Shown in pieces: positions 1,422 through 54,502 of a DNA stretch of 64,000 nt. A program made the translations under genes and the position numbers. The stretch is from positions 434,001-498,000 of the forward strand of contig NZ_CP054698.1 of the NCBI RefSeq assembly GCF_014023275.1, read 5' to 3'. Under the pieces are notes generated by a model, which worked only from the letters and a program-made list of their open reading frames with translations, searched no databases and had not been told where the DNA came from. This stretch comes from Nostoc edaphicum CCNP1411 (GTDB lineage: Bacteria > Cyanobacteriota > Cyanobacteriia > Cyanobacteriales > Nostocaceae). Positions within the stretch are counted from its first letter, which is position 1. Every line of letters begins with the position of its first letter.

Positions 1422-1530
1422 AGATGAAGAAGATGAAGAAGATGAGGAAGAAGGAGAAGAATAGGAAGAAAAACTATTGATTATTCTCCCATGCCCCATG
1501 CCCCATGCCCAATGCCCCATGCTCAATGAC
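1422..1530. repeat. Purine-rich tract plus CCCCATG heptamer repeats in the divergent intergenic region
   Basis: A GAAGAT/GAAGAA purine-rich run (about 1422-1472) is followed by degenerate tandem CCCATGC-type heptamers (about 1488-1530). Such short tandemly repeated heptamers are common in Nostoc genomes and recur through this window. They lie between the kinase and rhomboid-like genes, directly in front of the latter's ATG. Confidence 0.7.
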
Positions 1531-8093: not shown

Positions 8094-8373
8094 TCATTGA
8101 ATCTGTTTAAGTGCGTCAGCCTCAGCATGGTTTTTTCCCGGTGCCCGCGTGTATCCTTGAGCTACTACCTTTTGGGCATCTATGATTACACAGACTACTG
8201 GTGGGTTCGGCAAACATTCCGGCAAAGCTTTTCTGCTTTGAGCTAAAGCAGCTAGTACCGCAAGGCGGAATTAAAAATTAAAAATTAAAAATGAATACAG
8301 CGTAAGGGTTTTGTTGATTGGGAATGGGTGGTTTATTTCCGCCGTGCTGTACTAGCATAAATATTTCATCCAT
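8094..8373 (-). pseudogene. RibD-like deaminase fragment interrupted by a MITE
   Basis: Reading leftwards from ATG at 8373 gives MDEIFM, then the MITE 8256-8351, then a continuous frame ALAQSRKALPECLPNPP followed by VVCVIIDAQKVVAQGYTRAP and GKNHAEADALKQIQ to TGA at 8096-8094. This matches the N-terminus of RibD-type zinc deaminases (PNPxVGxVIV, then HAE zinc ligand and catalytic Glu). Removing the element plus one CTAG copy restores one frame of 59 codons. The PCxxxGxTPPC zinc site and everything after are missing, so the gene was also truncated at its 3' end. Not functional. Confidence 0.75.
8252..8355. mobile_element. MITE copy 1 (96 bp, CTAG target duplication)
   Basis: Element 8256-8351 has terminal inverted repeats TACCGCAAGGCGGAA / TTCCGCCGTGCTGTA (13 of 15 match) and is flanked by CTAG on both sides (8252-8255, 8352-8355). 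The centre carries about three AAAAATT heptamers. A near-identical 110-bp copy lies at 51996-52105, longer by two heptamers. It has no coding capacity, so it must be moved by a transposase elsewhere; a YTAR-type 4-bp target suggests an IS5-family enzyme (inference). Confidence 0.85.
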
Positions 8374-30883: not shown

Positions 30884-30911
30884 CAATGACTAATGACTAA
30901 TGACTAATGAC
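30884..30911. repeat. AATGACT heptamer repeat
   Basis: About four tandem AATGACT copies directly downstream of the DevA gene and abutting the end of the next minus-strand gene. Confidence 0.65.
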
Positions 30912-33720: not shown

Positions 33721-36700
33721 ATGAACAAAACCTTTGCAACCATCGATGGGAATGAAGCTGTCGCCCGTGTTGCTTACAAACTAAATGAAGTGATTGCCAT
33801 TTATCCCATCACCCCCTCTTCAGCAATGGGTGAATGGGCAGATGCTTGGTCAGCAGAAGGTCGTCCTAACCTCTGGGGGACTATTCCCAGCGTCGTGCAG
33901 ATGCAAAGTGAAGGAGGAGCGGCTGGTGCTGTGCATGGGGCATTGCAAACAGGTTCTCTGAGTACCACCTTCACGGCATCTCAGGGATTATTGTTGATGA
34001 TACCCAACTTCTACAAAATTGCTGGTGAGTTGACTAGCGCCGTGGTTCACGTTGCAGCCCGTTCTTTGGCTACTCACGCTTTATCTATTTTTGGCGACCA
34101 TAGCGACGTGATGGCAGCTCGTGCAACTGGTTTTGCCCTGCTGTGTTCCGCTTCGGTGCAGGAAAGTCAAGATTTTGCTCTCATCGCTCATGCTGCTACC
34201 CTAGAGACGCGAGTCTCCTTTATGCATTTCTTTGACGGCTTTCGCACCTCCCATGAAGTGCAGAAAGTTAAATTGCTCTCAGATGATGATTTGCGATCGC
34301 TAATTCACGATAACTTAATACTCGCCCACCGCAGCCGTGCGTTGACCCCAGACCGTCCTGTATTACGCGGTACTGCTCAAAACCCCGATGTCTATTTCCA
34401 AGGACGTGAAGGCGCTAACCCTTATTACAACGCCTGTCCAGAAATTGTCCAACGGATCATGGATGAATTTGGAGAACGCACGGGAAGGCATTATAAAATC
34501 TATGAATATTACGGTGCTAACGATGCCGATCGCGTTATTGTTCTTATGGGTTCAGGTTGTGAAACCGTCCATGAAACAGTAGATTACCTGAACGCTCGTG
34601 GTGAAAAACTTGGTGTAGTCAAAGTGCGACTTTACCGCCCCTTTGATGTCCAAAGGTTTGTTGCAGTATTACCAACTAGTGTACAAGCGATCGCAGTTCT
34701 CGACCGCACCAAAGAAGCAGGTAGCGCCGGTGAGCCTTTGTATTTAGATGTTGTGGCTGCTATTCATGAAGTATGGGGAATGGGGCATGGGGCATTGGGC
34801 ATTGGGCATGGAGAGAATGAAAAATTACCTCTTTCCCCTCTGCCTAAAATTATTGGTGGGCGTTATGGTCTTTCTTCTAAAGAATTTACTCCGGCGATGG
34901 TGAAGGGGATTTTTGATAATCTTGCCGAAGCTAAACCGAAGAATCATTTTACTATTGGGATTAATGACGATGTAAGTCATACTTCCTTGAGCTTTGACCC
35001 TAATTTCTCTACAGAATCGGATAATGTTGTTCGGGCAATGTTTTATGGATTGGGCGCTGATGGTACTGTTGGCGCTAACAAAAACTCCATCAAAATTATT
35101 GGTGAAGAAACCGATAATTACGCCCAAGGCTACTTTGTCTTTGATTCCAAGAAATCTGGCTCGATGACTGTCTCTCACCTCCGTTTTGGGAAAGAGCCAA
35201 TTCGCTCCACCTATCTAATTGACCAAGCCAACTTTATTGGTTGTCACCACTGGGGATTTCTAGAACGCATAGATATTTTGAAGGCTGCTATTCCTGGGGC
35301 GACTTTGCTGCTTAACAGTCCATACAATGCAGATACCGTCTGGGAATATTTACCGATAAAGGTACAGCAGCAAATTATCGACAAGCATTTGAAGTTATAC
35401 GTAATTAATGCTAGCCAGGTTGCTCGTGAAAGTGGCATGGGTGGCAGAATTAACACCATTATGCAAGTATGCTTCTTTGCTTTAGCGGGTGTCTTGCCAC
35501 AAGAAGAAGCGATCGCTAAAATCAAACAAGCGATTGACAAAACCTACGGTAAAAAAGGTGTAGAAGTTGTCCGCATGAACTTGCAAGCTGTAGACAACAC
35601 CCTAGACAACTTGCATAAAGTAAATATCCCCCAAACAATCAACAATCCAAAATCCAAAATCCAAAATCCAAAATTGCTAGACTCCGCTCCCGAATTTGTG
35701 CAAGAAGTTCTGGGCAAAATCATGGTGTGGGAAGGTGATGACTTACCTGTTAGCACACTACCAGTTGATGGCACTTTCCCCGTAGGTACTGCCAAGTGGG
35801 AAAAACGTAACGTTGCTGAAGAGATACCAGTGTGGGAGCCGGATGTCTGCGTACAATGTGGTAAGTGCGTCATGGTGTGTCCCCACAGCGCCATCCGGGC
35901 AAAGGCTTATCAAGCAGATGAGTTAGTCAATGCACCAGGAACCTTTAAGTCAACTGGTGCAAAAGATAAAGACTTTGCCAATCAAAAATTTACCATTCAG
36001 GTAGCACCAGAAGATTGCACGGGATGTACGATTTGTGTAAATATTTGCCCTGCTAAAAATAAATCTGAGCCATCGCTGAAAGCAATTAACATGGCGCAGC
36101 AGTTGCCATTGCGGGAACAAGAGCGAAAAAACTGGGATTTCTTTTTGAGTTTACCTAATCCTGATAGGCGATCGCTAAAAGTCAACCAGATTCGCCAGCA
36201 ACAACTGCAAGAACCATTATTTGAATTCTCTGGTGCTTGTGCAGGTTGTGGTGAAACACCTTATTTAAAATTATTAACACAACTGTTTGGCGATCGCGCT
36301 GTCATCGCCAATGCTACAGGTTGTTCCTCAATTTATGGCGGAAATCTCCCCACCACTCCTTGGACAACCAACGCCCAAGGACGCGGCCCCGCTTGGTCTA
36401 ATAATCTATTTGAAGATAACGCCGAATTCGGTTTTGGCTTCCGCCTTTCTCTCGACAAACAAGCCGAGTTTGCGGCGGAATTATTGCAAAAATTGGGGAA
36501 TGGGGAATCGGGCATAGGGCATGGGGAATTGGGAATACCTCACGAGTTGGTACAATCTATTCTCAATGCCAAACAAAACACTGAGGCTGATATTTGGGAA
36601 CAACGAGAACGGGTAGCGCTGTTGAAACAAAAGCTAGATGAACTTTTAGAAAAAAGGAATTACCACTCCCATGCCCCATGCCCTATGCCCCATGCCCAAA

Positions 36701-40331: not shown

Positions 40332-40929
40332 ACCCAAAGAACCCCATCCCGCCAAAGTTACGCTTTGTCTCCCCTTTTCCCAAAAGGTTACAGTGTACAC
40401 ACAAGTATAAAAAAGCTCAATTTCCCTTATTCTCTCGTTTATCTCGTTCATACCTGATCAGAGGCTACTTCCCCCTGCCCCCTGCCCCCTGCTCCCTGCT
40501 CCCCTGCCCCCTGCCTCCTTCAAATTTGTTGCCTGACTTTAGCTTTCGTATTAAAATTTTGGAGTAATGCTTCATGGTTAATGCAGTCAAACGTTCAATG
40601 CGGATATTCTGAAGATGCGCCCCCGTATGTCTGATTTTTTATATCACCCTACAGAATTTATCTTCTTCTATTTCCAACCCTTTTTTGTGGTGGGCAGTAC
40701 TTAGAGTAGGAGGGGGCGGGCGATCGCTTAGGTGCGATCGCATCACTGGTTAACTATCTGTTAACTATCTACTGGATGCAGAGAGTTGTCTCCTATGTCA
40801 TCCTATGATTAGGAGAGTTAATTCAGTGATGTCTTTGGTTTTAGTATTGAAAGGCTTTTTCCTTTTAGTATTTACAGACTTCTCAGAGAAATTAAAATCT
40901 CTACACAGTGATGATTTTGGAGAGAATCG
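40332..40929. other. Intergenic region with repeats and 5' UTR of the RRM gene
   Basis: Carries a decayed GTGTACACACAAGT end (about 40392-40407), a C-rich heptamer run CCCCTGC (about 40468-40518) and GCGATCGC sites. The last 130 bp, ahead of the RRM gene, are probably a long cold-shock-type 5' leader. No gene seen. Confidence 0.5.
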
Positions 40930-43643: not shown

Positions 43644-43745
43644 GGCAGGGGGCAGGGGGCAGGGGGCAGGGGGCAGGGGAGCATGGGGGAGATAAGGGAG
43701 ACGAGGGAGAAATAAGTAATGCCCCATGCCCAATGCCCAAAAACA
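43644..43745. repeat. GGGGGCA and CCCCATG heptamer repeats
   Basis: About five GGGGGCA heptamers (43647-43680) begin a few bases after the kinase stop; a second tract of ATGCCCA type ends at about 43739. Confidence 0.75.
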
Positions 43746-51288: not shown

Positions 51289-52194
51289 TTAAGATTTTGG
51301 TTGTGCAGCCTGTCTAACAACTTGTTCGTCTAAACCTAACGCTTGAGCTATCTGCTCAATACTTAAACCTAACCCTAATAACTGGGGTATTACTTCTAAC
51401 TTACCTTCCTGTTTCCCTTCTTGTTTCCCTTCTGCAAAAACATCTTGGTAAAATCTAGTTTGCCTTAACTCATTTGATCCAAACATTTTTCTTATTTCCT
51501 CCTGGCTTAATCTCGGTAACTTGTAGATTAATATCGTCTCTATCAATTGTATAATTTCCCTAATAGTAGCGACATCTAGAATTTGCTGTTGGGCAGTGTT
51601 AACTATTTCAATAGCTCTTGTTGTCGCAGTTAATTCGGGTTCGATAATTAGTTTAACTGTCTCAATGCCGATTGATGATGTCTCAATTGAGCTTAATTCG
51701 TCAAGATAGACGCGAGTGACTCGTTGTGAGTTGAGTAATTCTGTATATCTTTCAGTATCTCCAGTATCAACGCTGCGGTTGGGGAAGATGACAACACCAC
51801 GCCAATTGTTAGTTAATTCGGTTTTGTCAAGATAATTAAAGATTTCGGTGAATAAGCGTGAGTAAAACTTTTTGTCTGGTTGAAATTGCACTTCTGCAAA
51901 ATAGATGGGTAGTTCTGCTGCATTGGGGAGAAAGACGCCATCGATTCTAAAGGACAGTTGCTTGACTTCTACTGAAGAAAATTGGTAAGCACTAGTACCG
52001 CAAGGCGGAATTAAAAATTAAAAATTAAAAATTAAAAATTAAAAATGAAGACAGCGTAAGGGTTTTATTGATTGGGAATGGGTGGTTTATTTCCGCCGTG
52101 CTGTACTAGCTAGTTGCGGCGGTTGGTTAATCAGTTCAAAGAACGTGCTGGGGATACTTTGAAAGATGCGATAAAAGATACTGTCTGTTTTCAA
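51289..52194 (-). pseudogene. DUF2887 / Rpn-like PD-(D/E)XK gene disrupted by MITE copy 2
   Basis: From a TTG at 52194 the frame reads KTDSIFYRIFQSIPSTFFEL INQPPQL and then enters the MITE, where TAA stops it. After the element the same frame continues AYQFSSVEVKQLSFRIDG, VFLPNAAELPIYFAEVQFQ and on to the end at 51289 with an EGKQEGKQEGK hinge. Subtracting the 110-bp element and one CTAG (114 bp) leaves 263 codons in frame, matching the DUF2887 family (RIDGVF ... EVQFQ nuclease core). A GTG at 51891 could begin a 200-residue fragment lacking the first core residue. Probably inactive. Confidence 0.85.
51992..52109. mobile_element. MITE copy 2 (110 bp, CTAG target duplication)
   Basis: Element 51996-52105 with terminal repeats TACCGCAAGGCGGAA / TTCCGCCGTGCTGTA and flanking CTAG at 51992-51995 and 52106-52109. 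Nearly identical to copy 1 at 8256-8351 apart from two substitutions and two extra 7-bp AAAAATT units. Confidence 0.88.
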
Positions 52195-54447: not shown

Positions 54448-54502
54448 TAACCAATGCCCTATGCCCTATGCCCTATGCCCTATGACAAATGACAAATGAC
54501 AA
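54448..54502. repeat. CCCTATG and ATGACAA heptamer run overlapping a start codon
   Basis: About four CCCTATG heptamers followed by three ATGACAA heptamers (54482, 54489, 54496). The last copy supplies the ATG of the NifU/Rieske gene. Confidence 0.8.

What the first reader, a model, noticed from the sequence alone, without database searches (positions are those of the whole stretch)
51289..52194. Second copy of the same MITE breaks a DUF2887 nuclease-like gene
The 110-bp copy at 51996-52105 also lies between CTAG repeats. Excising element plus one CTAG gives Pro-Gln-Leu-Ala-Ser-Ala-Tyr-Gln-Phe in frame across the junction and a 263-codon gene with RIDGVF and EVQFQ motifs. Two independent insertions with the same CTAG duplication and near-identical sequence indicate recent movement of one element family.
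Basis: partly seen in the sequence, partly recalled or inferred. Interest (0 to 1): 0.72.

Follow-up and report, generated by a model that had tools for sequence, protein, structure and literature searches.

The report
CTAG-inserting MITE breaks an Rpn-family gene
A 110-base non-coding jumping element, one of dozens of near-identical copies in this Nostoc-type cyanobacterium, has landed in and broken a nuclease-like gene; it has the ends of a transposon of the IS630/mariner family that appears to duplicate four bases (CTAG) instead of that family's usual two.

Summary
The 110-bp element (51996-52105) lies between CTAG direct repeats in a DUF2887/Rpn-family gene. In 29 of 29 relatives' loci examined the site holds 4 bases (CTAG in 23) where the window has 118, so the insertion is real, precise and absent from those relatives. 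The genome carries about 80 copies (157 ends, control 0); of 69 that I extracted, 61 have CTAG on both sides. CTAG-flanked ends occur in 52 of 53 genomes of the genus, own included. The suggested IS5 partner is not supported: relatives carry a ~1.32-kb IS with the same kind of ends and an IS630-type transposase (DDE_3, NF033545) split into two overlapping frames at a C-run. In the window's genome the search found one close copy, a deleted 873-bp remnant. Unexpected: where a flank is not CTAG, 15 of 70 paired copies still show identical 4-bp repeats (CTAC, CTAA and others). That favours a 4-bp duplication over the TA usual for IS630/Tc1-mariner, though other pairs fit TA. The transposase has a D-E spacer of 65-66 residues, against 34-37 in five other IS630s of this genome.

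The parts
51996..52105 (+). MITE copy, 110 bp, non-coding
   Evidence: absent at the orthologous site in 29 of 29 relatives' loci examined
51992..51995 (.). left copy of the CTAG direct repeat
52106..52109 (.). right copy of the CTAG direct repeat
51996..52010 (+). left terminal inverted repeat TACCGCAAGGCGGAA
52091..52105 (-). right terminal inverted repeat TACAGCACGGCGGAA; with the next bases TACAGCACGGCGGAAATAA it equals one end of the IS630-type element in L213 and L215
52011..52045 (+). array of five TTAAAAA units; 1 to 6 leading units among 55 classified copies, and identical cores carry 2 to 6 units
52110..52194 (-). cut-off 5' part of the DUF2887/Rpn-family gene (TTG start)
51289..51995 (-). 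remaining part of the same gene; 51289-51891 is an open frame from an internal GTG
8256..8351 (+). other copy of the MITE in the window, 96 bp, CTAG at 8252-8255 and 8352-8355

Best explanation
The feature is a MITE, a non-autonomous relative of an IS630-family insertion sequence, that inserted into a CTAG in an Rpn/DUF2887 gene of a Nostoc-type cyanobacterium, duplicated the target (most likely all 4 bp; I put that part at about 0.7) and stopped the reading frame after 35 codons. Shown: the insertion, the single-CTAG empty site, the family of about 80 copies, and an IS of about 1.32 kb in relatives with the same kind of ends and the same CTAG flanks. Inferred: the transposase of that IS, made by frameshifting at a C-run between an HTH frame and a DDE frame, binds the similar ends of IS and MITE and pastes the element into CTAG. 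In this genome the one close copy of that IS that was found is internally deleted, so the family may now be stranded here. The confidence given is for MITE plus IS630-type source, whatever the duplication length.
For: Empty sites: 29 of 29 relatives' loci examined, 29 different genomes. Copies: 157 ends at up to 2 mismatches, reversed-pattern control 0; 61 of 69 extracted copies have CTAG/CTAG and one has CTAAG/CTAAG. Distribution: 52 of 53 genus genomes, own included; exact right-end matches under nine genus names of Nostocales. Partner: in 7 of 10 loci examined (L210, L211, L212, L213, L215, L216, L219, seven genomes) both ends lie 1.32-1.45 kb apart with CTAG outside; L116, where it was first seen, is the same place as L210. 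Frame A has HTH_23/HTH_29/HTH_32 and frame B DDE_3; both match NF033545 IS630, frame B above and frame A below its cut-off. The C8 run is kept in 6 of 7 junctions found among 16 loci; L212 has seven C. The copy in the window's genome lies on contig C5: 873 bp between ends, its 201-aa frame 97% identical to L211's, flanked by CTAC/CTAC.
Against: No transposition was observed, and cross-mobilisation by another transposase cannot be excluded. The MITE's left end (TACCGCAAGG...) is less like the IS ends than its right end, and the IS ends themselves vary. ISY100, an IS630-family IS of a cyanobacterium, duplicates TA (34 of 39 products normal; PMC2170065, passages seen), so the 4-bp part is unusual. 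Of the 70 pairs, 12 GTAG/CTAG (6 in one repeated target) and 5 more (GTAG/CTAA 2, GTAG/CTAT 2 at one site, TTAG/CTAT 1) fit a TA duplication.
Confidence: 0.87

Rival explanations
1. The MITE is mobilised by an IS5-family (or IS701/IS4-type) transposase, whose known target YTAR includes CTAG (YTAR is recalled).
For: MITEPsy1 of Pseudomonas syringae, ascribed to an IS5-type IS, duplicates CTAG or YTAA (PMC3189936, passages).
Against: In the window's genome 18 of 18 loci with PF13546, 30 of 69 with PF01609 and 3 of 3 with PF13359 were scanned (scans). They gave single matches with 5-6 mismatches only, apart from a neighbouring MITE in L167. The other 39 PF01609 matches were not scanned. An IS630-type IS with the ends exists.
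Confidence: 0.04
2. Same element and partner, but the duplication is only TA as in other IS630/Tc1-mariner elements; the element then is 112 bp, G...C, and the CTAG on each side is target C/G plus element G/C.
For: Family rule: TA duplicated, and a CTAG target for IS630 itself (passages and reference titles). In CTAG targets the two models give the same sequence. 12 GTAG/CTAG pairs and 5 pairs such as GTAG/CTAA fit it.
Against: 15 of 70 paired copies with a non-CTAG flank have the same four bases on both sides (14 sites). Chance agreement is about 2% per copy (rough). CTAAG/CTAAG in L004 and CTAC/CTAC around the own IS copy also fit a longer duplication. Six of the GTAG/CTAG pairs lie in one repeated target.
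Confidence: 0.25
3. CTAG is part of the terminal inverted repeat (as in GTAG-tagged REP elements moved by RAYT-type enzymes, recalled), not a duplication.
For: CTAG is its own reverse complement and the left end could form a small CCGC-AAG-GCGG hairpin (by eye).
Against: The empty sites keep one CTAG, and non-palindromic flanks repeat directly (CTAC...CTAC, CTAAG...CTAAG), not inverted.
Confidence: 0.02
4. Ancestral sequence with deletions in the relatives, or an assembly error.
For: None found.
Against: 29 of 29 relatives' loci examined lack it precisely, the element is multi-copy, and 24 of the 29 have an open frame of 259-329 aa through the junction.
Confidence: 0.01

Closest known systems
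IS630-family insertion sequences / Tc1-mariner (ISY100 of Synechocystis, IS630 of Shigella)
   Same: The partner IS has a DDE_3 catalytic domain and an HTH region and matches NF033545; inverted ends; CTAG target as in the title on IS630 by Tenzen and Ohtsubo 1991 (seen only in a reference list).
   Different: Apparent 4-bp duplication in place of TA; [quoted passage not shown] transposase split in two frames.
Sailor (DD82E), a group of the IS630-Tc1-mariner order with 4-bp TATA duplications (PMC8533490, passages)
   Same: A long D-E spacer goes with a 4-bp duplication.
   Different: Target TATA not CTAG, and a spacer of 82; no sequence comparison was made here.
MITEPsy1 (PMC3189936, passages)
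   Same: 100-bp MITE that duplicates 4 nt, CTAG or YTAA.
   Different: Other ends, other host, and a suggested IS5-type partner.
BrickBuilt of Porphyromonas gingivalis (PMC4596501, passages)
   Same: A bacterial MITE with a tandem array inside.
   Different: 23-nt unit; unrelated host.
Nezha and the MITEs of Anabaena sp. 90 (the Nezha paper was seen only in reference lists; Anabaena 90: PMC3542288, passages)
   Same: MITEs of Nostocales; those of Anabaena 90 break genes.
   Different: I could not compare sequences; the Anabaena 90 MITEs were reported without a matching IS.

Membership tests
MITE | short, non-coding, terminal inverted repeats, many copies | tested here: met
   82-117 bp in 67 of 69 extracted copies, the other two 62 and 214 bp; 15-bp ends; 157 ends
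MITE | target duplication and empty site | tested here: met
MITE | ends shared with an autonomous IS | tested here: met
   (right end identical over 19 bases to an end of L213 and L215; left end less alike)
IS630 family (partner IS) | IS630-type DDE transposase | tested here: met
   PF13358 E 5.2e-29 for frame B of L116; NF033545 E 6.4e-31, 107.9 bits against cut-off 100, for frame B of L211; frame A 72.3 bits, below the cut-off
IS630 family (partner IS) | TA target duplication | tested here: inconclusive
   CTAG contains TA; 15 concordant CTAC, CTAA, CTAT, GTAG and TTAG repeats favour 4 bp, 17 other pairs fit TA
IS630 family (partner IS) | D-E spacer of about 34-36 (recalled; 34-37 in five own-genome proteins) | tested here: not met
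   65 in 7 and 66 in 1 of 8 loci
IS5 family | IS5-type transposase with these ends | tested here: not met
   no such ends at the 3 PF13359 loci or the 18 PF13546 and 30 of 69 PF01609 loci scanned; own genome only
Rpn / DUF2887 gene | family profile match | tested here: met
   PF11103, TIGR01784

The most novel reading that the evidence does not exclude
In Nostocales there is a distinct branch of the IS630-Tc1-mariner order with a D-E spacer of about 65 residues, a two-frame transposase joined at a conserved C8 run, and a 4-bp CTAG (rarely CTAN) duplication in place of TA. It has seeded MITEs with a variable heptamer array in nearly every genome of the genus examined, and in the window's genome the MITEs outlast their deleted source.
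Probability: 0.55. Interest if true: 0.55.

Novelty: new variant of a known kind. Interest (0 to 1): 0.4.

Why it matters
As a gene disruption this is ordinary. It becomes useful because partner, target and empty sites can all be read from sequence. The long D-E spacer together with an apparent 4-bp duplication parallels Sailor and makes the link between catalytic-domain insertions and stagger length testable in a small bacterial element. The family is also a ready marker of recent movement and of 7-bp array slippage across Nostocales.

Tried and rejected
IS701-type (PF13546), DDE_Tnp_1 (PF01609) and IS5-type (PF13359) transposases of the window's genome were tested as partners. Scans for the ends found single matches with 5-6 mismatches and one neighbouring MITE; 39 of the 69 PF01609 matches were not scanned. 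A pair of ends 1.6 kb apart at C6:681349/682926 looked like a larger element, but the main frame in between reads (by eye, recalled) as a prohibitin-like protein, not a transposase. Other IS630s of the window's genome: 30 of 58 DDE_3 matches were fetched, and only the C5 copy has these ends as its own; 28 were not inspected. A MITE search of plasmid records gave 7 records and no annotated feature under the match. The fold of the single strand is only moderately better than shuffles (z -2.42, 3 of 200 as good), and no terminator-like site and no promoter-like site beyond chance was found around it. No solved structure matched frame B by sequence.

My first pairing of non-CTAG ends favoured concordant partners when choosing among candidate ends. 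It was replaced by a pairing on end sequence alone. All 116 such ends (51 + 65) were fetched; 113 are distinct, the other 3 repeating a local sequence seen in another genome. Of the 113, 70 were paired and 43 had no partner end within 300 bp at up to 2 mismatches. The 70 are: 44 with CTAG on the other side, 15 concordant, 1 with a 5-bp repeat, 10 other. The chance rate is crude. Before counting 69 own copies I dropped two double-called rows (L063 and L066, minus strand); ten printed ends without a right end were also left out (three run off their locus, two places are listed twice, one is a chance match by eye). The remaining copies behind the 157 ends were not extracted. One search used 80 of the 88 named loci; 54 gave a left end (48 CTAG), 26 did not.

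The PADLOC scan failed on a wrong coordinate and was not repeated. Papers: no description of this element was seen in the listings or in the passages read; the library holds only open-licence papers, and ISfinder was not available.

Full report
Observation. The element is 110 bp, with imperfect 15-bp inverted ends (TACCGCAAGGCGGAA and TACAGCACGGCGGAA, 2 differences), CTAG on both sides, and five TTAAAAA units after the left end. Against shuffles the ends are far from chance. As found, the gene frame reads 35 codons and stops at TAA inside the element; with the element and one CTAG left out it reads 263 codons.

The insertion is real. A search with the gene region in 53 genus genomes (own included) gave flank matches that abut in the relatives. 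Of the 29 relatives' loci that were fetched, 29 have 4 bases at the site where the window has 118: CTAG in 23, and CTGG, TTAG or GTAG in 6 (in L141, L156 and L158 the aligner left 1, 2 and 8 query bases out, and the gap is again 4 once these are counted). In 24 of 29 an open frame of 259-329 aa from the first start codon runs through the site; L132, L141, L146, L150 and L155 have shorter frames (128-223 aa), so the gene seems broken or shortened in other ways there. The relatives' loci that were not fetched were not examined.

The family. The genome (8.32 Mb, 6 contigs) has 157 ends with CTAG at up to 2 mismatches and none for the reversed pattern. From the loci I fetched, 69 copies were extracted: 61 with CTAG/CTAG, one with CTAAG/CTAAG, 7 with one altered side. 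Lengths mostly step by 7 bp (89, 96, 103, 110, 117). In 55 copies with a TTAAAAA array the number of leading units is 1-6, and six copies with one identical core have 2, 3, 4, 4, 5 and 6 units, so the array seems to change faster than the core. Other subfamilies have other 7-bp units at the same place (TTCAAAA, GTCAAAA, TTCGGAA). In the genus 52 of 53 genomes have CTAG-flanked ends, 1030 in all (summed). Exact matches to the right end occur in 88 stretches, under the names Nostoc, Desmonostoc, Rhizonema, Spirirestis, Roholtiella, Scytonema, Westiellopsis, Calothrix and Dolichospermum.

The partner. One genus locus, L116, holds two such ends 1.32 kb apart around two overlapping frames; it is the same place as L210. 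Frame A matches HTH domains and frame B DDE_3; in L211 both match NCBIfam IS630 (frame B above, frame A below the cut-off). With frame B as query, 38 of 53 genomes have a match at E 0.001 or better, but many of these are weak matches to other IS630s. In one search, 7 of 10 loci, from seven genomes, have both ends 1.32-1.45 kb apart with CTAG outside; L224 has them 431 bp apart, and in L214 and L217 that call did not find both ends (with a looser pattern, did). The MITE's right end shares TACAGCACGGCGGAAATAA with L213 and L215. The frames meet at TTAACCCCCCCCTG in 6 of 7 junctions found among 16 loci (L212 has seven C); frameshifting is described in the IS630 family (PMC5009743, passages). In the window's genome this query found two matches (7 of 7 candidates scored), one of them strong, on contig C5: 873 bp between ends, frame A missing, and its 201-aa frame 97% identical to L211's. 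Of 58 DDE_3 matches in this genome 30 were fetched, and no other has the ends as its own. Frame A was not searched for on its own.

Duplication length. In a CTAG target, TA and CTAG duplications look the same, so I collected every end in the 53 genomes whose outer four bases differ from CTAG at the first base (65) or the last base (51) and whose 15-bp end is otherwise exact. Paired by end sequence alone, 70 copies remain. 15 have the same four bases on both sides: CTAC 7, CTAA 4, CTAT 1, GTAG 2, TTAG 1. Two of the CTAA copies (L244, L333) are one orthologous site, and a third genome's copy there (L245) reads CTAA/CTAG. One further copy has the 5-bp CTTAG on both sides; it is the own copy L004 seen from the other strand. 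A rough chance rate is 2% per copy. The own IS copy is flanked by CTAC/CTAC. Against this, 12 GTAG/CTAG pairs fit a TA duplication, though 6 of them sit in one repeated target sequence, and 5 more pairs (GTAG/CTAA 2, GTAG/CTAT 2 at one site, TTAG/CTAT 1) fit it too. TTAG/CTAG (13) and CTAA/CTAG (10) are about equal, as mutation would give. I take 4 bp as more likely than TA, not as settled; a mixture is possible. [quoted passage not shown] five other IS630 proteins of this genome have 34, 34, 36, 36 and 37. Sailor, another long-spacer group, duplicates TATA (PMC8533490, passages).

Judgement. The finding is right, and it is an ordinary MITE insertion with unusually clean proof. The correction is the partner (IS630, not IS5). 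The point of interest beyond the finding is the apparent 4-bp duplication by an IS630-type element with a long D-E spacer. I found no description of it in the searches listed under Tried and rejected, which cover only an open-licence library.

Noticed in passing
L131, L132, L134-L139, L142-L145, L147, L149, L152, L153, L157 (orthologues of window 51289-51546): In these 17 of 29 relatives' loci, one or two further frames (up to 117 aa stop to stop) that repeat the C-terminal end of the DUF2887/Rpn protein lie beside the full-length or longer frame, downstream of it. No such match was seen near the gene in the window. They may be small separate proteins; function untested.
   Followed up: partly
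L011, L015, L058, L065, L079, L082, L090 flanks: Several MITE copies lie against another repeat beginning CTAGT(G/A)GTCTGTC or close to it, so the element often uses the CTAG at the end of a second repeat family (by eye).
   Followed up: no
L277, L294, L296, L360, L369, L374: Six GTAG/CTAG copies sit in one repeated target (atccagttatgga...ggtat.gg and similar), probably a second interspersed repeat carrying the MITE.
   Followed up: no
window 1488-1522, 30885-30911, 34773-34811, 35644-35674, 40471-40519, 43644-43688, 54454-54484: Several 7-bp tandem arrays with unrelated units occur outside the MITEs, so heptamer slippage may be a general trait of this genome.
   Followed up: no
L062 (C6:2146070-2146291): A MITE copy of 214 bp with about 100 bp of other sequence, including other 7-bp units, inside it.
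   Followed up: no
window 51404-51433: 12-bp tandem repeat coding for a GKQEG-type repeat in the DUF2887 protein; its length varies among relatives.
   Followed up: no
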